Assembly (NCBI RefSeq): GCF_002920535.1 | Contig: NZ_PQSS01000001.1 | Span: 186,001 to 250,000, forward strand | Source: Streptomyces sp. Ru71 | Lineage (GTDB): Bacteria; Actinomycetota; Actinomycetes; Streptomycetales; Streptomycetaceae | DNA length: 64,000 bases | Direction of reading: 5' to 3' | Shown here: positions 18,461 to 25,386 of the stretch, piece after piece | How the letters are laid out: each line of letters opens with the position of its first letter | How positions within the stretch are numbered: the stretch's first letter is position 1 | The notes under the pieces: model-generated | Seen by the model: the letters and a program-made list of their open reading frames with translations, nothing else | What the model was told of the DNA's origin: nothing | Databases searched by the model: none | Made by a program: the position numbers and the translations under genes

Positions 18461-20095
18461 ATGTCCGACGCCACCGTCGTCTGCTCGAACCTGTCGTTCT
18501 CCTGGCCCGACGACACCCCTGTCTTCCACGACCTGTCGTTCGCCCTGACCACCGGCCGCACGGGCCTGGTCGCCCCCAACGGTGCCGGCAAGAGCACCCT
18601 GCTGAAGCTGATCACCGGCGAACTCAAGCCCGCCACCGGCTCGGTGTCCGTCAGCGGCACGCTCGGCTATCTGCCGCAGAGCCTCCCCCTGACCGGCGAC
18701 CTCACCGTGGCCGAAGTCCTCGGCGTCGCCGCGGTGATCCGTGCGCTGGACGCCGTCGAGTCGGGGGACGTGAGCGAGGAGCACTTCACCACCATCGGCG
18801 ACGACTGGGACATCGAGGAGCGCACCCGGGCCCAACTCGACCGCCTGGGCCTCGCCGGCCTCGCCCTCGACCGCAACCTGAGCACACTCAGCGGCGGCCA
18901 GGTGGTCCAGCTCGGCCTCGCCGCGCAACTGCTCAAGCGACCGGACGTCCTGCTGCTCGACGAGCCGACCAACAACCTGGACCGCGACGCCCGGCACAAG
19001 CTGTACGACGTACTGGCGGACTACAGCGGGCTGTTGCTGCTGGTCGCGCACGACCGAGCCCTGCTCGACCGCATGGACGGCATCGCCGAGCTCGGCAGCA
19101 GCCAACTGCGTTTCCACGGCGGCAACTTCACCGCGTACGAGGAGGCCGTGCGTGCCGAGCAGGAGGTCGCCGAGAAGAATGTCCGCAACGCCGAACAGGA
19201 GCTGAAGCGGGAGAAGCGGGAGCTGCAGCAGGCCCGCGAACGCGCCGAGCGCCGCGCCGGCAACGCCGCCCGCAACCTCAAGAGCGCCGGACTGCCACGC
19301 ATCTTCGCCGGCAACATGAAGCGCGGCGCACAGGAGTCCGCGGGCCGGGCCGGCCAGATGCACGCCTCCCGCGTCGGCGAGGCCAAGGCCCGCCTCGACG
19401 AGGCCGGGCGCGCGCTGCGTGACGAGCAGCGCATCACCCTGGAGCTGCCCGACACCCAGGTGCCGGCGGGGCGCAACCTCTTCCTCGGCTCGGGGATGCA
19501 GGTCCGGCACGACGGCAAGGACGTGTTCACCGGCGGAGGCGTCGACCTCTCCGTACGCGGACCCGAGCGCATCGCGCTGACCGGCCCCAACGGCTCCGGC
19601 AAGACGACCCTGCTAAGGCTGATCACCGGCCAACTCTCCCCGGTCAGTGGGGAGATCGCACGTGGCGAGGGCCGCATCGCCTATCTCTCGCAGCGCCTGG
19701 ACCTGCTGGACCTGGACCGCACCGTGGCGGAGAACTTCGCCGCGTTCGCGCCCGAGCGGCCCGACGCGGAACGGATGAACCTGCTCGCGCGTTTCCTGTT
19801 CCGCGGCTCCCGGGCGCACCTGCCCGTCGGTGTGCTCTCCGGCGGCGAACGACTGCGGGCCACCCTCGCCTGCGTCCTGTGTGCGGAACCGGCCCCCCAT
19901 CTGCTCCTGCTCGACGAGCCGACCAACAACCTCGACCTGGTCAGCGTGGGCCAGCTGGAGAGCGCGCTCAACTCCTACCGGGGCGCCTTCATGGTCGTCA
20001 GCCATGACGACCGGTTCCTCGCCGAGATCGGCGTGAGCCGCTGGCTGCGCCTTGCCGAGGGAGCGCTCGTGGAGACCGGGGCGCCCGAGGTGTGA
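18461..20095 (+). CDS. ABC-F family ATPase (antibiotic resistance / ribosome protection type)
   Basis: A 544-aa soluble protein with two ABC domains and no membrane segment. Domain 1: Walker A APNGAGKST (38-46), signature LSGGQ (143-147), Walker B LLLDEP (164-169). A charged, coiled-coil interdomain linker follows (about 225-330, rich in EQELKREKRELQQAR). Domain 2 has GPNGSGKTT, LSGGERLRATL and LLLLDEPTNN. ABC-F proteins bind the ribosomal E site and displace antibiotics or rescue stalled ribosomes. The size resembles the Streptomyces LmrC/TiaA type, but I cannot assign the antibiotic. The long leader with a short ORF and hairpin supports drug-induced attenuation. Confidence 0.9.
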   Translation: MSDATVVCSNLSFSWPDDTPVFHDLSFALTTGRTGLVAPNGAGKSTLLKLITGELKPATGSVSVSGTLGYLPQSLPLTGDLTVAEVLGVAAVIRALDAVESGDVSEEHFTTIGDDWDIEERTRAQLDRLGLAGLALDRNLSTLSGGQVVQLGLAAQLLKRPDVLLLDEPTNNLDRDARHKLYDVLADYSGLLLLVAHDRALLDRMDGIAELGSSQLRFHGGNFTAYEEAVRAEQEVAEKNVRNAEQELKREKRELQQARERAERRAGNAARNLKSAGLPRIFAGNMKRGAQESAGRAGQMHASRVGEAKARLDEAGRALRDEQRITLELPDTQVPAGRNLFLGSGMQVRHDGKDVFTGGGVDLSVRGPERIALTGPNGSGKTTLLRLITGQLSPVSGEIARGEGRIAYLSQRLDLLDLDRTVAENFAAFAPERPDAERMNLLARFLFRGSRAHLPVGVLSGGERLRATLACVLCAEPAPHLLLLDEPTNNLDLVSVGQLESALNSYRGAFMVVSHDDRFLAEIGVSRWLRLAEGALVETGAPEV

Positions 20096-20133
20096 CCGGT
20101 CGGACCGGTGACGAACCTTGCACGTCACCCACG

Positions 20134-20152
20134 TCACCTGTCAAGATGGTGA
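20134..20152. promoter_or_regulatory. CGNR-box 1 (19-bp inverted repeat) at the regulator's own start
   Basis: TCACCTGTCAAGATGGTGA. The same motif occurs at 21035 and 23685. The candidate promoter TTGCAC (20118-20123), 18 bases, CAAGAT (20142-20147) would start transcription at about the GTG 20154. The box therefore covers the -10 and the transcript would be leaderless, which suits autorepression. Confidence 0.65.
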
Positions 20153-20153
20153 T

Positions 20154-20717
20154 GTGAATCTTGACCATGTCTTCGTGTGCGGACACCCGGCGCTCGACTT
20201 CGCGGCCACGCTGCGCGCCCGGCGCTCGACCCGGTTCGAGATGTTCGCGACGCCGCAGCGTCTCACCGCCTGGTATGTGGAGTCCGGGCTCGTCGACGCC
20301 ATCACGCCCGGCGCGGAGGACGACGTCCGGGAGGCGATCGGTGTGCGCGAGGCGATCTACCGCCTCGTCACCGATCGCCGCCTCGGAGAGGAGTTCGACC
20401 GGGAGGCGCTCGCGGTGCTGAATGCCGCCGCGCGGCGGGAGCCGGTGACGCCGCAGCTCACTCTGAGGGGCCGGCACACCGACGCGACGCCCGGGCAGGC
20501 CCTGGCCACCGTCGCCCGGCAGGCCGTCGAACTGCTCAGCGGTCCGGACGTCCCGCTGCTGAAGGAGTGCGGCAACCCCGAGTGCACGCGGGTCTACATC
20601 GACCGCTCGCGGGGCATGCGGCGGCAGTGGTGCGGCATGGAGTCGTGCGGCAACAAGATAAAGTCGGCGGCCTACCGCGCCCGCAAGAAGACGGCACCCG
20701 CCGCGGCCGGGGGCTGA
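20154..20717 (+). CDS. CGNR zinc-finger (ABATE domain) putative transcriptional regulator
   Basis: A 187-aa protein. GTG 20154 is chosen because the family N-terminus begins there (VNLDHVFVCGHPALDFAATLRARR). No ribosome binding site precedes it, which suits a leaderless mRNA. The ABATE domain fills about 1-130. The C-terminal CGNR zinc finger reads LKECGNPECTRVYIDRS, then QWCGMESCGNKIK, with four metal-ligand cysteines and the basic tail AAYRARKK. The family is thought to be stress-responsive DNA-binding regulators. Three identical-type 19-bp boxes nearby make it the best candidate for the local regulator (inference). Confidence 0.85.
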   Translation: MNLDHVFVCGHPALDFAATLRARRSTRFEMFATPQRLTAWYVESGLVDAITPGAEDDVREAIGVREAIYRLVTDRRLGEEFDREALAVLNAAARREPVTPQLTLRGRHTDATPGQALATVARQAVELLSGPDVPLLKECGNPECTRVYIDRSRGMRRQWCGMESCGNKIKSAAYRARKKTAPAAAGG

Positions 20718-20746
20718 CCGGCCGGGCGGGTCGAGTCGAACGGCGT

Positions 20747-20941
20747 CTACAGCCCCAGGTCGAGGGCCAGGCACGAGTAGTACTTCCAGGAGCCCTGGGG
20801 ATCGTACGAGGCGCCGGCCCTGCGAGGACCGCCCGCCACCTCTTCGGTCATGTCCTCGAAGCGAATGCGCTCCGGAAGCCTGCCGAACCGCGCGCGCCGC
20901 GCCGCTGCCGCGGCGGTGTCGGGTCCGAGTTCGTTCTGCAT
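20747..20941 (-). CDS. Small hypothetical protein, 64 aa
   Basis: Not recognised. It has a strong GGAGG 7 bases before the ATG, and a CGNR box 94 bases upstream, so it looks like a real gene. No signal peptide or membrane segment. The N-terminal half is Ala/Arg-rich and probably helical (TAAAAARRARFGRLPERIRFEDM). The C-terminal 20 residues are different in character: aromatic, with one Cys and a hydrophobic end (QGSWKYYSCLALDLGL). This leader/tail contrast recalls RiPP precursors, but no maturation enzyme of a known RiPP class is adjacent. It converges on the CGNR gene with a 29-base gap. Confidence 0.6.
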   Translation of the reverse strand: MQNELGPDTAAAAARRARFGRLPERIRFEDMTEEVAGGPRRAGASYDPQGSWKYYSCLALDLGL

Positions 20942-21034
20942 GGTCCGTCCTCCACTTCGTCGGGTGATCCGTGTCTCGCCGGGCGGCTCGGCGTCTGCCG
21001 CCGCACTGGACGTCTACCAGCGTCCACCCTGCCA

Positions 21035-21053
21035 TCACCAGTCAAGATGGTGA
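21035..21053. promoter_or_regulatory. CGNR-box 2 (19-bp inverted repeat) upstream of the 64-aa gene
   Basis: TCACCAGTCAAGATGGTGA, perfect 6-bp arms TCACCA/TGGTGA around a 7-base spacer. On the minus strand it contains TTGACT, a good -35 hexamer, directed towards the small gene. Confidence 0.65.
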
Positions 21054-21089
21054 CTTTAGGGTGAGGGTGTGCCGGGACACCTGCGGCCG

Positions 21090-22532
21090 TCAGACGGTGA
21101 TGGTCTTGTACTCGGTGTAAGTGCCGAGACCCACCGCGCCGTACTCGCGACCGATCCCACTGGCCTTGAAGCCACCGAACGGGCCGTCGAAGGCGACGGG
21201 AGCGCCGTTGACCGTGACGGTACCGGCGCGGATGCGGCGGGCGACCGCCAGGGCGTGCTCCTCGTCGCCGGACCACACGCCGCCGGACAGACCGTACGGG
21301 GAGTCGTTGGCGATGCGTACGGCGTCGTCCTCGTCTGCGTAGGCGATGACGACCAGAACCGGGCCGAAGATCTCCTCCTGCGCGATGCGCATCGAGTGGT
21401 CCACGTCGGCGAACACGGTGGGGGTGACGTAGTTGCCCTTCTCCAGGCCCTCGGGGATCCGCGGGCCGCCCGTGACCAGGCGGGCGCCCTCCTCGATGCC
21501 GAGCTGGATGTAGGTACGTACCCGCTGCTGCTGGTCCGGGCGGATCATCGGGCCGATGAACGTGTCGGGGTCGCTCGGGTCGCCCACCTTCAGCGACTCG
21601 ACCAGCTCCTTCAGCGCCGTGACGACCTCCTCGTACCGGCTGCGCGGCGCGAGGATCCGGGTCTGCGCGATGCACGACTCGCCGTTGTTGAGCAGGGAGG
21701 CGAACTTCAGGCCCGCGACGGCCCGGCCGATGTCGGCGTCCGGCAGGATGACGGCGGCGGACTTCCCGCCCAGCTCCAGACTGACCCGCTTGAGCTGCTC
21801 CCCGGCGATCGCGGCGATCCGGCGGCCGGCCCGCGTCGAGCCGGTGAAAGCGATCTTGTCGACGTCCCGGTGCGAGACCAGGTACTCGCTGGTCTCCCGG
21901 TCGGCGGGCAGGACACTGATCACGCCTTCGGGCAGGCCCGTCCGCTCCAGCAGCCCGGCCAGGAATCCCATGCTCAGCGAGTTCTCCGGGGACACCTTCA
22001 GGACCACGGAGTTGCCGGCGGCGAGAGCCGGGATGATCTTCGAAGTGGCCGAGGAGAACGGCGAGTTCCACGGGATCACGGCCGCGACGACACCGACCGG
22101 CTCACGGCGCACCACACTGCGTACCGGTGACGCCGGGTCGGAGGGAGCGAGCCTCTCCTCCCAGGCGAACTCCTCGGCCGCCTTCAGGTAGGCGTTCGCC
22201 TGCCGGGTGAGGCCTGGCTGTCCGGCGCGGGTGAACCAGAGCGCCGAGCCGTTCTCCAGCGAGACCAGACGCGCGACGTGCTCGGCATTCTCCTCGCGCA
22301 GGGTGTTGAACCGCCGTAGGAGCGAGATGCGTTGGTCCGGCGGGGTGGTGCGCCACACGCCCGCGTCGAAGGAGGCTCTCGCGGCGGCCACGGCCCGGTC
22401 GATGTCCGGCGGCTGCGCCTGGGCGGTGCGGCCGATGAGGGACTGATCGTGCGGCGAGACGAGGTTGTGGAGCGCCGGGTCGCTCGGCTCCGTCCAGGAG
22501 CCCCCGATGAAAAGCCGGTCGTAGACGATCAC
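21090..22532 (-). CDS. Aldehyde dehydrogenase (NAD(P)+)
   Basis: A 480-aa ALDH superfamily enzyme. GTG 22532 has an AGGAG 8 bases upstream and matches the normal family start (YDRLFIGGSW). Catalytic C287 (NNGESCIAQTRIL), general base E253 (LELGGKS), oxyanion N156 (IPWNSPF), K179 and the NAD-binding FTGSTRAGRRIA are all present. It oxidises an unidentified aldehyde to the acid in the cytoplasm. It lies 31 bases downstream of an alpha/beta hydrolase gene on the same strand, so a two-gene operon is likely. Confidence 0.92.
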   Translation of the reverse strand: MIVYDRLFIGGSWTEPSDPALHNLVSPHDQSLIGRTAQAQPPDIDRAVAAARASFDAGVWRTTPPDQRISLLRRFNTLREENAEHVARLVSLENGSALWFTRAGQPGLTRQANAYLKAAEEFAWEERLAPSDPASPVRSVVRREPVGVVAAVIPWNSPFSSATSKIIPALAAGNSVVLKVSPENSLSMGFLAGLLERTGLPEGVISVLPADRETSEYLVSHRDVDKIAFTGSTRAGRRIAAIAGEQLKRVSLELGGKSAAVILPDADIGRAVAGLKFASLLNNGESCIAQTRILAPRSRYEEVVTALKELVESLKVGDPSDPDTFIGPMIRPDQQQRVRTYIQLGIEEGARLVTGGPRIPEGLEKGNYVTPTVFADVDHSMRIAQEEIFGPVLVVIAYADEDDAVRIANDSPYGLSGGVWSGDEEHALAVARRIRAGTVTVNGAPVAFDGPFGGFKASGIGREYGAVGLGTYTEYKTITV

Positions 22533-22563
22533 GCGTTCTTCTCCTGGGGTCGTCGGGGCGCCG

Positions 22564-23631
22564 TCAGAGGTGGTCGGCGTCGACGACGGCCTGCGTGAAG
22601 GCGGACGGTGCCTCCTGCGGCAGGTTGTGGCCGATGCCGGGGAGCGTGCGGTGCTCATACGGGCCCGTGAAGTGGTCGCGGTAGGCGGAGCCGTCGCCGG
22701 GCGGGGTGAAGGGGTCCAGGGCGGGGTCGAGAGTGATCGTGGGCACCTGGATGGGCGGCCGGGCGGCGAGCAGGGCCTCGTGGCGACGGTAGCGCGGCTC
22801 CGTCTCGATCAGACCGATGCGCCAGCGGTAGTTGTACAGGACGATGGCCGCGTAGTCGGGGTTCCTGAACGCCTCGGCCGTGCGTGCGAAGGTCGCGTCG
22901 TCGAAGTCCCAGGTGGGCGAGACGAGAGTCCACACGTAGCGGCACAGGGCGATGCGCTCGTCGACGTTCTCCATCGCCTTCTTGCCGCGCTCGGTGGCGA
23001 AGTACCACTGGTACCACCACTTGTGCTCGACGGCCGCCGCGGCGGGCTCCTGCTGTGCCTTGACGTCGGTGATGAGGTAACCACCGGTCGAGACGAGGCA
23101 TTTGACGCGCTCGGGCCACAGCGCCGCGACGATGTCGGCGGTACGCGAACCCCAGTCGAACCCGGCGAGCACCACCTTGTCGATCTTGAGGGCGTCCATC
23201 AGGGCGATGATGTCGAGCGCGACGGCGGACTGCTCGGCGGTGCGGGGCGTACGGCGGGACAGGAAGCGTGTGGTGCCGTGGCCGCGCAGATAAGGAACGA
23301 TGACGCGGTACCCCTGGTCGGCGAGGAGCGGGGCGACGTCGACGTAGCTGTGGATGTCGTAGGGCCAGCCGTGCAGGCACAGGACGACCGGGCCGTGCGC
23401 CGGCCCGACTTCCGCGTAACCGATGTCGAGGACACCGGCCTTGATGTGCTTGAGCGGGCCGAAATCGGTGTGGGTGACGGCGGGCGGGGTGGGTGCCGGT
23501 GCGCCGCCCGGAGCAGGTGAGTCCGTCGGGCCGCTCGCGGCGGACGCGAGGGACTGCAGGCCGGTCAGTGAGGCCGCGGCCGCGCCCGTACCCAGACCGA
23601 GAGCCTTCGCCAGCGTGCGCCTGTTGATCAC
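22564..23631 (-). CDS. Tat-exported alpha/beta hydrolase, epoxide-hydrolase/haloalkane-dehalogenase-like
   Basis: A 355-aa protein. GTG 23631 follows a GGAGG and begins a Tat-like signal (NRRTLAKALGLGTGAAAASLTG). The catalytic fold begins at about residue 60. The oxyanion motif is LHGWPYDIHSY. The nucleophile elbow is GFDWGS with D159, so an Asp nucleophile as in epoxide hydrolases and dehalogenases rather than the Ser of esterases. The final catalytic His is likely in PGIGHNLPQ. Its CGNR box lies 54 bases upstream. With the ALDH downstream, conversion of an epoxide- or halide-derived compound is conceivable (inference). Confidence 0.85.
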   Translation of the reverse strand: MINRRTLAKALGLGTGAAAASLTGLQSLASAASGPTDSPAPGGAPAPTPPAVTHTDFGPLKHIKAGVLDIGYAEVGPAHGPVVLCLHGWPYDIHSYVDVAPLLADQGYRVIVPYLRGHGTTRFLSRRTPRTAEQSAVALDIIALMDALKIDKVVLAGFDWGSRTADIVAALWPERVKCLVSTGGYLITDVKAQQEPAAAAVEHKWWYQWYFATERGKKAMENVDERIALCRYVWTLVSPTWDFDDATFARTAEAFRNPDYAAIVLYNYRWRIGLIETEPRYRRHEALLAARPPIQVPTITLDPALDPFTPPGDGSAYRDHFTGPYEHRTLPGIGHNLPQEAPSAFTQAVVDADHL

Positions 23632-23684
23632 GAGAAATCCCTCCGTCGCGGCCGGTGATGGGAAGACCTTCACACAGGAATGCG

Positions 23685-23703
23685 TCACCAGTCAAACCGG
23701 TGA
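23685..23703. promoter_or_regulatory. CGNR-box 3 (19-bp inverted repeat) upstream of the hydrolase-ALDH pair
   Basis: TCACCAGTCAAACCGGTGA, the third copy of the motif. On the minus strand it includes TTGACT, again as a likely -35, directed towards the hydrolase gene. Operator overlap with the -35 implies repression. Confidence 0.65.
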
Positions 23704-24629: not shown

Positions 24630-25280
24630 TCACTTCACTTGCGCACGCGGAGTTCCGGTGCCGCGCCTGTCATCCACCTCGATGGCCAGATCCGGCCACA
24701 CCTGCGCCAGACGCTCGCACCGGCCCCGCATCGACACCCCTGTCGTGCGCAAGGGGCCGTCCGGTCGGAAGTGGACGAGGGTCCCGGTGGTGCCGTCGGC
24801 CTCGACAGGCTCCAGGTCGGTGACCGGGACGCCGTACTCGTAGCGTTGGGTCCAGGCACCGTCGACGCGGCGGTTGGTGTGGACGAGCCATTCACTGAGC
24901 GCCGCCACCACGGACATGCCCCGACGCGGACGGCCGTCCGGAAGCCGTTCCGCCTCTGGATGGTCGAAGAACCGGAGATCCTTCGACGCCATGATGGGCT
25001 TCTTGACGATCCGACCGTGCTCGTCCTCACGGGTGTCAGTGCCGCGCCCGTCATCTGCCACGGACAAGGATCCATCCGGCCAGAACGTGACGAGGCAGCG
25101 TCCACCGCCCCTGCAGGATGCCTCGTCAGCGGCGTACGCGAGCACCTCCAGGAGGAGATGCCACGGGCCGCCCGGCGCGAACTCCTCCGGGGCCTGTCGT
25201 ATGGATGCCAGATGATCCAGATCGACCGCGCCGGACCAGTCGTGCGTCGTGTTGACCCAGGAACCGCTTGAGACGTCCAT
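24630..25280 (-). CDS. Stand-alone GHKL ATPase domain protein (GyrB N-terminal-like)
   Basis: A 216-aa protein. ATG 25280 gives the N-terminus MDVSSGSWVNTTHDWSG. The Bergerat fold is recognisable: helix with LLLEVLAYAADEA (N-box position), the glycine motif VADDGRGTDTREDEHGRIVKKPIMASKDLRFFDHP resembling the gyrase DNGRGIPV loop, and RRGMSVVAALSEWL resembling the GyrB helix after the ATP lid. The length stops near the end of the ATPase domain, so no transducer, TOPRIM or DNA-gate part is present. It is not a functional topoisomerase subunit; role unknown. Confidence 0.75.
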   Translation of the reverse strand: MDVSSGSWVNTTHDWSGAVDLDHLASIRQAPEEFAPGGPWHLLLEVLAYAADEASCRGGGRCLVTFWPDGSLSVADDGRGTDTREDEHGRIVKKPIMASKDLRFFDHPEAERLPDGRPRRGMSVVAALSEWLVHTNRRVDGAWTQRYEYGVPVTDLEPVEADGTTGTLVHFRPDGPLRTTGVSMRGRCERLAQVWPDLAIEVDDRRGTGTPRAQVK

Positions 25281-25386
25281 CAGGCAATCATCCCGTCCTC
25301 GGACCCGACCTTGTCGGGCACAGGATGTCGGGTCCGGCACGGTGGGTCCTTCCTAACGTGAGTGATCGAAAGGGAAGGGGACCGGG

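What the first reader, a model, noticed from the sequence alone, without database searches (positions are those of the whole stretch)
20134..23703. Three copies of a 19-bp inverted repeat define a mini-regulon around a CGNR zinc-finger regulator
Seen directly: TCACC[A/T]GTCAA[G/A][A/C][T/C]GGTGA occurs at 20134-20152, 21035-21053 and 23685-23703, each just before a different transcription unit: the CGNR/ABATE regulator itself, a 64-aa peptide gene, and a hydrolase-aldehyde dehydrogenase pair. In two copies the box overlaps a TTGACT -35 on the coding strand. In the regulator copy it covers a CAAGAT -10. Inference: the CGNR protein is an autoregulated repressor of a small detoxification or signalling module. 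DNA sites for this regulator family are, to my knowledge, poorly described.
Basis: partly seen in the sequence, partly recalled or inferred. Interest (0 to 1): 0.8.

Follow-up and report, generated by a model that had tools for sequence, protein, structure and literature searches.

The report
Operator code of CGNR zinc-finger regulators
A 19-letter mirrored DNA box occurs three times around the gene of a little-studied zinc-finger protein in a likely Streptomyces genome, and nearly the same box stands right before that gene in dozens of related bacteria, so it is likely the switch by which the protein would turn down its own gene and a few predicted clean-up genes.

Summary
In detail: the three 19-mers are where reported, are the only exact copies in the 8.2-Mb genome, and chance gives 0.06 per window. 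In 70 of 81 loci (80 relatives plus the window) the box, with at most one mismatch, lies at -20 to -2 from the CGNR start codon, over the predicted -10 of a leaderless promoter. In 295 genomes of the genus the box tracks the gene (89 of 92 box-bearing genomes; 3 of 192 genomes without the gene; reversed-pattern control 0 of 295). Relatives carry larger predicted regulons (peptide, hydrolases, OsmC, MsrA), often with boxes paired 40-42 bp apart.

The unexpected part is wider: 54 of 118 distinct CGNR genes across Actinobacteria have a related dyad (ACC...GGT, spacing 9 or 16-19) or the half-site ACC-N-GTCAA before them, far above controls; proteobacterial ones show ACC-N19-GGT, and single looser examples occur in Deinococcota and Bacillota. 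I found no operator for this family in the open-access library searched.

Binding, repression and the inducing signal are inferred, not shown. Autorepression is likely; peroxide or electrophile sensing is a guess.

The parts
20134..20152 (+). box 1 (O1): predicted operator of the CGNR gene, TCACCTGTCAAGATGGTGA
   Evidence: same place in relatives
20093..20111 (+). second, degenerate box (O2), TGACCGGTCGGACCGGTGA, 3 mismatches to TCACCNGTYAANNNGGTGA, 41 bp upstream of O1; overlaps the stop codon of the ABC-F gene
   Evidence: sequence; partner sites at 40-42 bp recur in relatives
20118..20123 (+). predicted -35 TTGCAC of the CGNR promoter, 18-bp spacer
   Evidence: sequence; TTGC present in most rows of the upstream listing
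20142..20147 (+). predicted -10 CAAGAT inside box 1; A and T at box positions 13-14 in 81 of 81 regulator copies, against 17% and 20% in 64 target copies
20154..20717 (+). ABATE + CGNR zinc-finger regulator, 187 aa, GTG start, predicted leaderless
21035..21053 (-). box 2, 93 bp before the 64-aa peptide; TTGACT (21040-21045) on the peptide strand
20747..20941 (-). 64-aa conserved small protein, C-terminus SYDPQGSWKYYSCLALDLGL, predicted target
   Evidence: 219 proteins at E<=0.001 including itself, 14 aligned; box before 26 of 29 relatives' genes
23685..23703 (-). box 3, 53 bp before the hydrolase; TTGACT -35 at 23690-23695, predicted -10 GAAGGT 23666-23671, spacer 18
22564..23631 (-). alpha/beta hydrolase with a twin-arginine-like leader (motif recalled), predicted target
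   Evidence: box before 26 of 29 relatives' genes
21090..22532 (-). aldehyde dehydrogenase, second gene behind the hydrolase; predicted co-transcribed

Best explanation
The three boxes are likely operator sites of the CGNR zinc-finger protein encoded beside them, which would act as a dimeric autorepressor: it is predicted to cover the -10 of its own leaderless promoter and the -35 of the peptide and hydrolase promoters. Shown by sequence: the box positions, their fixed place before CGNR genes, the co-occurrence with the gene, the partner box 40-42 bp away in many relatives, and the TTGAC inside the box with a -10-like element 17-18 bp on in six of seven box-side gene groups. Inferred: that the CGNR protein binds the box, that binding represses, that paired boxes are bound together on one DNA face, and that a ligand or stress signal sensed by the ABATE domain (perhaps a peroxide or electrophile, judged from the target genes) releases it. 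The box looks like the local form of a wider CGNR operator: half-site ACC-N-GTCAA facing GGT, at spacing 9 (this subfamily) or 16-19 (others), with outer bases that differ among subfamilies.
For: Chance excluded (reversed-pattern control 0 in all 295 genomes). Fixed place -20..-2 before the CGNR start in 70 of 81 loci at <=1 mismatch, weaker in the rest. Co-occurrence 89/14/3/189, Fisher 5e-56; 215 of 218 boxes in genomes with the CGNR gene (threshold E<=1.6e-33 chosen). In nine genomes (G009, G073, G118, G123, G124, G138, G156, G180, G289) the only exact box lies 1-10 bases before the matched part of a CGNR gene just 41-46% identical to this one. Genes in the 80 loci with a box of <=2 mismatches within 260 nt upstream (which recounts): peptide 26/29, hydrolase 26/29, OsmC 16/16, unnamed 142-aa gene 11/11, MsrA 7/8, second hydrolase 7/8, molybdopterin oxidoreductase 24/26, tannase-like 27/37; ABC-F neighbour 0/49; all predicted genes of score >=30 there, targets included, 213/1031. 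Partner boxes (<=3 mismatches) at offsets 40, 41, 42: 11, 18, 40 cases, 0.25 per offset at 60-120 (a pair of strong sites counts twice). Promoter-element overlap. Family-wide: ACC-N17-GGT 20 vs 0.95 expected and N9 8 vs 1.15 among 118 distinct CGNR genes; ACCNGTCAA in 27/118 CGNR upstreams vs 9/721 other upstreams and 0/48 downstream regions; either sign in 54/118; outside Actinobacteria ACC-N19-GGT in 7/17 vs 0.04 expected. A second paralog in this genome (L125) has its own dyad GAACCGGCTAAGNNGGTTC, found only at its own promoter, two copies 42 bp apart.
Against: No binding or expression data. Orthologous sequences are not independent, so p-values overstate. 14 of 103 genomes with the gene have no exact box, 3 genomes have a box without it. 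76 of 118 distinct CGNR genes show no fully symmetric dyad at spacings 9 or 16-19, and 64 show neither dyad nor half-site. By the control of 721 other upstreams, N9 is only a moderate excess (8 against 2.3 per 118), and CCG-N16-CGG, an arm not tested by shuffling, also counts 12 of 118. The -10 signal is modest (mean score 1.26-1.27 at spacers 17-18, 0.47-1.02 elsewhere); the ABC-F group shows none, and the peptide promoter in this window has no good -10. The GTCAA core is also conserved in regulator copies where it cannot be the -35, so its match to TTGAC may be partly incidental. Box orientation differs among genes: toward TTGAC for peptide, OsmC and 142-aa gene, the other way for MsrA (6 of 7) and molybdopterin oxidoreductase (21 of 24). 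For tannase-like and molybdopterin genes the core is often GTTAA or GTTGA. A baseline of 213 of 1031 genes with a loose box shows that these neighbourhoods are rich in boxes whose gene assignment can be ambiguous.
Confidence: 0.77

Rival explanations
1. The CGNR protein binds the boxes but acts as an activator, or as repressor of its own gene and activator of the targets (box overlapping the -35, class-II style).
For: In the targets the box sits on the -35, a place used by class-II activators (recalled); peptide, OsmC and 142-aa targets carry the box in the opposite orientation to the regulator.
Against: The TTGAC in the box is itself a near-consensus -35, which an activated promoter would not need; the regulator copy covers -10 and reaches the start codon, where binding and polymerase would exclude each other; second boxes of OsmC and 142-aa genes lie downstream of the predicted -10.
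Confidence: 0.17
2. Another regulator binds the boxes and the CGNR gene is only one of its targets.
For: No binding data exist; one recurring box-side family is a regulator (BTAD type, in 3-4 of 81 loci).
Against: The box stays before CGNR genes down to 41-46% identity (the neighbourhoods there were not examined); many distant CGNR genes have dyads of the same design before their own starts; of 18 box-side gene clusters seen in at least two loci, the only regulator families I recognised are CGNR itself and BTAD (clusters 12, 14, 16 and 17 remain unidentified or unscanned).
Confidence: 0.06
3. The box is a conserved promoter or start-codon element of leaderless genes, not a protein operator.
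For: In regulator copies it spans -10 to start codon.
Against: Target copies mostly lie 50-120 bp from their genes and lack the -10 constraint; both 5-bp arms are conserved in each; spacing classes and 40-42 bp pairing have no promoter meaning.
Confidence: 0.03
4. Chance or repeat artefact.
For: Short sequence, GC-rich arms.
Against: (reversed pattern 0 of 295).
Confidence: 0.005

Closest known systems
Jann_2411 (PDB 3h0n), founding structure of the ABATE / CGNR zinc-finger family (PMC2954205, passages read)
   Same: Same two domains; the paper proposes a dimeric, signal-dependent transcription regulator with a DNA-binding treble-clef zinc finger
   Different: The passages read name no DNA site, target or operator; Jann_2411 has CQNR and this protein CGNK at the naming motif
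TetR/LacI-type local autorepressors (recalled)
   Same: Works like them: small, probably dimeric one-component regulator with an inverted-repeat site over its own promoter and those of neighbours
   Different: No helix-turn-helix found; the DNA reader would be a treble-clef zinc finger; sites come in 40-42-bp pairs and in spacing classes within one family
OhrR-OsmC/Ohr peroxide regulation (recalled)
   Same: An OsmC-family gene and MsrA are among box-bearing genes in relatives
   Different: OhrR is a MarR-family protein; the regulator here is CGNR, and peroxide sensing is untested

Membership tests
ABATE/CGNR zinc-finger family | ABATE domain PF07336 | tested here: met
   E 2.7e-29, 102.8 bits vs cut-off 24.4, full profile
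ABATE/CGNR zinc-finger family | CGNR zinc finger PF11706 with four cysteines | tested here: met
   E 1.6e-17, 63.5 bits vs 24; CGNPEC...WCGMESCGNK; the motif reads CGNK
ABATE/CGNR zinc-finger family | Dimer, DNA binding | not testable with these tools
   dimer reported for Jann_2411 (PMC2954205, passages)
ABATE/CGNR zinc-finger family | ACC...GGT dyad before the own gene (proposed here as a family trait, not a published criterion) | tested here: met
   box 1; in the family 54 of 118 genes have a dyad or half-site, 7 of 17 outside Actinobacteria have ACC-N19-GGT
TetR/LacI/MarR-type repressors | helix-turn-helix DNA-binding domain | tested here: not met
   only ABATE and zf-CGNR found by Pfam; works like one, is not one
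autorepressor (mode of action) | site overlaps own core promoter | tested here: met
   box 1 over predicted -10, A13 and T14 in 81 of 81 loci; the promoter itself is predicted
autorepressor (mode of action) | loss of the protein raises own and target transcription | not testable with these tools
   needs a deletion strain

The most novel reading that the evidence does not exclude
All over the bacteria, CGNR zinc-finger proteins are autorepressors that read one shared operator code: half-site ACC-N-GTCAA facing GGT, in a compact class (9 bp between ACC and GGT) and a long class (16-19 bp) that follows the zinc-finger subfamily, with the outer two base pairs as the specificity letters and with pairs of sites four helical turns apart. 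This opens a whole uncharacterised regulator family to regulon prediction from sequence.
Probability: 0.65. Interest if true: 0.82.

Novelty: new variant of a known kind. Interest (0 to 1): 0.72.

Why it matters
The CGNR family has had a structure since 2009 and a guess at a role, but I found no DNA site for it in the library searched. This genome alone has nine CGNR genes; the family was found in 105 of 296 sampled genomes of the phylum and on plasmids of Proteobacteria, Deinococcota and Bacillota. A common operator makes each member directly testable by gel shift, lets regulons be predicted by pattern search, and offers a non-HTH bacterial zinc-finger reader whose specificity seems to vary in a readable way.

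Tried and rejected
Other CGNR paralogs of this genome as readers of the same box: L125 has a different dyad and L120 another, CAACCGGATAACATCAGTACACCGGTTG; four (L119, L121, L124, L126) had none by the dyad test and two (L122, L127) were dropped by my parse, so they are untested. The ABC-F neighbour as a target: box within 260 nt in 0 of 49 (the 1 of 50 was a slicing artefact of my script at a locus end); the symmetric TCACCAGTTAAACCGGTGA boxes about 300 bp before it lie closer to the divergent molybdopterin gene. A residue-to-base code for the outer pair (for example CGNK with TC/TG): looked at, too few cases; proteins without CGNK that have TG or TC exist (L223, L245), so dropped. Spacing class against the zinc-finger residue after D-x-S-[RK]: N9 0 of 8 have N, N16-19 26 of 35, family background 83 of 118 (Fisher 1.7e-4); this may be shared descent, some listed dyads look like chance, and L139 (SKN) has an N8 dyad. 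VOC (glyoxalase) genes: box in only 2 of 14. Peptide-CGNR co-occurrence across genomes: never obtained. No structure prediction was run.

Rows dropped before counts: searches used 118 of 139 CGNR loci (L119-L257): 14 failed my zinc-finger parse (some are true members with CGAR-type motifs, some are cut by contig ends), the other 7 were duplicates or short. One search used 17 of the 27 non-actinobacterial rows listed (one of ten Pantoea; all others except H40); 40 of 200 records were listed there. Start codons of unannotated ones were estimated from the tblastn match, and for L301 the estimate is out of frame; L295/L302 and L292/L293/L304 are close relatives, so the 7 of 17 are not independent. 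One search's target matrix used 64 copies with GTCAA/GTTAA core and a gene only on the TTGAC side. One search left out one gene each of OsmC, 142-aa, ABC-F and aldehyde dehydrogenase too near a locus end. Gene starts in the 80 loci come from my own simple gene finder or tblastn.
Full report
What was claimed and what is there. The three 19-mers are real and exactly placed. In the window no further copy appears even with three mismatches, against 0.06 expected; in the whole genome the relaxed pattern TCACCNGTCAANNNGGTGA has only these three exact copies, and the single 1-mismatch site falls inside a predicted reading frame. The neighbouring genes are an ABATE + zf-CGNR protein, a 64-aa protein without Pfam or NCBIfam match, an alpha/beta hydrolase with a twin-arginine-like leader (motif recalled) and an aldehyde dehydrogenase.

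Anatomy of the regulator promoter. The conserved protein starts at GTG 20154 (listing of 80 relatives). Box 1 (20134-20152) ends one base before it and contains CAAGAT (20142-20147); TTGCAC at 20118-20123 stands 18 bp upstream. In 81 of 81 loci box positions 13 and 14 of the regulator copy are A and T, as a -10 needs; in 64 target copies they are A 17% and T 20%. This is what a box doing two jobs, operator and -10, would look like. A second degenerate box lies at 20093-20111, 41 bp upstream, across the stop codon of the ABC-F gene.

Anatomy of the targets. Seen from the target genes the core reads TTGAC, and a -10-like hexamer scores highest on average at 17-18 bp from it (mean 1.26 and 1.27 over seven gene groups; other spacers 0.47-1.02). 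Six of the seven groups (hydrolase, peptide, OsmC, 142-aa, second hydrolase, tannase-like) score at least 1.5 at 17 or 18; the ABC-F group does not (0.7 and 0.3) (sequences). In the window this holds for the hydrolase (TTGACT-18-GAAGGT) but not well for the peptide. Orientation is strict for peptide (25 of 26), OsmC (16 of 16) and the 142-aa gene (10 of 11), looser for the hydrolase (21 of 26), and opposite for MsrA (6 of 7) and molybdopterin oxidoreductase (21 of 24).

Conservation and co-occurrence. A scan of genome contigs gave 80 loci with CGNR relatives at 77-92% identity (184 stretches encode relatives, the best 80 were kept). At the fixed place -20..-2, 70 of 81 (with the window) have the box with at most one mismatch to TCACCNGTYAANNNGGTGA and the rest a weaker form. 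Among 295 genomes of the genus 92 have 218 exact boxes and the reversed pattern has none. Of these 92, 89 have a CGNR protein at E<=1.6e-33; of the 203 without a box 14 have one; Fisher p 5e-56 (typed; threshold set after viewing). Species share ancestry, so the p-value is nominal. In nine genomes the only exact box lies 1-10 bases before the matched part of a CGNR gene of 41-46% identity; their neighbourhoods were not examined.

A larger regulon in relatives. In the 81 loci 224 further boxes (at most 1 mismatch; symmetric ones counted in both orientations) were found; by my simple gene finder 1 of 224 lies well inside a gene. Genes with a box of up to two mismatches within 260 nt upstream, recounted: peptide 26 of 29, hydrolase 26 of 29, OsmC 16 of 16, 142-aa gene 11 of 11, MsrA 7 of 8, second hydrolase 7 of 8, molybdopterin oxidoreductase 24 of 26, tannase-like 27 of 37; aldehyde dehydrogenase 5 of 13, all in the orientation that belongs to a divergent neighbour; VOC 2 of 14; ABC-F 0 of 49; all predicted genes of score 30 or more, targets included, 213 of 1031. 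Around 268 strong sites, partner sites with up to three mismatches pile up at 40, 41 and 42 bp (11, 18, 40 counts, pairs of strong sites counted twice); no other offset between 19 and 120 reaches 6, and the mean at 60-120 bp is 0.25. That is about four helical turns, consistent with paired dimers on one DNA face (inferred).

Family-wide operator. A second CGNR paralog of this genome (L125) has CAACCGGCTAAGGTGGTTC one base before its ATG and GAACCGGCTAAGCCGGTTC 42 bp upstream, and within two mismatches no other site in the genome. That suggested a common design, ACC-N9-GGT. I therefore collected CGNR genes across the phylum. In 118 distinct genes, symmetric xyACC-Nn-GGTy'x' upstream of the gene peaks at n=17 (20 vs 0.95 in shuffles), with 8 at 18, 5 at 16, 5 at 19 and 8 at n=9 (vs 1.15); no shuffle reached more than 6 at any n. 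ACC-N17 is the top count among all 64 three-base arms; the next is CCG-N16 with 12, for which no shuffles were made. In 721 upstream regions of other genes of the 80 loci n=17 occurs 6 times and n=9 14 times (0.98 and 2.3 per 118), so by that control n=9 is a moderate excess and n=17 a large one. The half-site ACCNGTCAA is in 27 of 118 CGNR upstreams, 9 of 721 controls and 0 of 48 downstream regions; 26 of 28 occurrences are on the coding strand. 42 of 118 have a symmetric dyad at 9 or 16-19, 54 of 118 a dyad or the half-site, 64 neither. Outside Actinobacteria, 17 plasmid-borne CGNR genes gave ACC-N19-GGT in 7 (0.04 expected) and N18 in 2; these are from Pantoea, rhizobia, Paraburkholderia and Cupriavidus. 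The single Deinococcus and Mesobacillus genes have looser AAC...GTT dyads, Ensifer has ACCTGTTAAACAGGT (n=9) just before its ATG without outer symmetry, and Rhizobium sp. Y9 and Sinorhizobium sp. K101 show none. Two of the 17 (Pantoea, Paraburkholderia) stand divergent to an alpha/beta hydrolase. The code is common, not proven universal.

Mechanism. Most likely the protein binds as a dimer (dimer reported for Jann_2411, passages of PMC2954205), shuts its own promoter by covering -10 and start, and shuts targets by covering -35, until an unknown signal frees it. The gene content in relatives (OsmC, MsrA, hydrolases) and the aldehyde dehydrogenase here point to peroxide or electrophile stress; that step is a guess. 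An activator role at targets stays possible (0.17).

Known or new. Searches in the open-access library returned one paper devoted to the family, PMC2954205 (passages read). The rest I saw only as listings with the start of abstracts (one search listed 40 of 46, 15 of 543); PMC3485107, PMC4260502 and PMC9976334 use the words 'CGNR zinc finger' once each and PMC6985099 names COG5516 twice, and I opened none of these. No operator or regulon for a CGNR protein was seen; subscription journals are mostly not in that library.

Noticed in passing
20747-20941: The 64-aa protein belongs to a family of 219 found proteins (itself included; 120 listed, named ones nearly all Streptomyces) with an almost invariant C-terminal GSWKYYSCLALDLGL and an LPERIRFEDMTEE segment in 14 aligned members; no Pfam or NCBIfam match. 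It could be a processed or signalling peptide.
   Followed up: partly
18461-20095: ABC-F protein just over the NCBIfam cut-off for ribosomal-protection-like ABC-F (383 vs 380 bits) directly upstream of the regulator; a relative lies within the locus in about 50 of 80 relatives (49 counted, 1 at a locus end).
   Followed up: partly
24630-25340: 236-aa ORF with no Pfam match whose NCBIfam matches are all to the N-terminal part of DNA gyrase subunit B / topoisomerase IV subunit B (best E 1.4e-14): perhaps a stand-alone GyrB-like ATPase piece.
   Followed up: no
L026, L029, L042, L060, L062, L063, L067: Bax-inhibitor-like membrane protein genes in 7 loci carry a box in forward orientation 114-200 bp upstream; in 5 of 7 it is the variant TCACCTGTCAGAGTGGTGA.
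   Followed up: no
L300, L305, L306: CGNR genes of Rhizobium and Shinella have GTAACG-N18-CGTTAC dyads; in L305 and L306 they are divergent to EamA transporter genes: perhaps another specificity class.
   Followed up: no
G222:C5:484611-485111: A second CGNR copy with an exact box before it; the match begins only at residue 29 of this protein.
   Followed up: no
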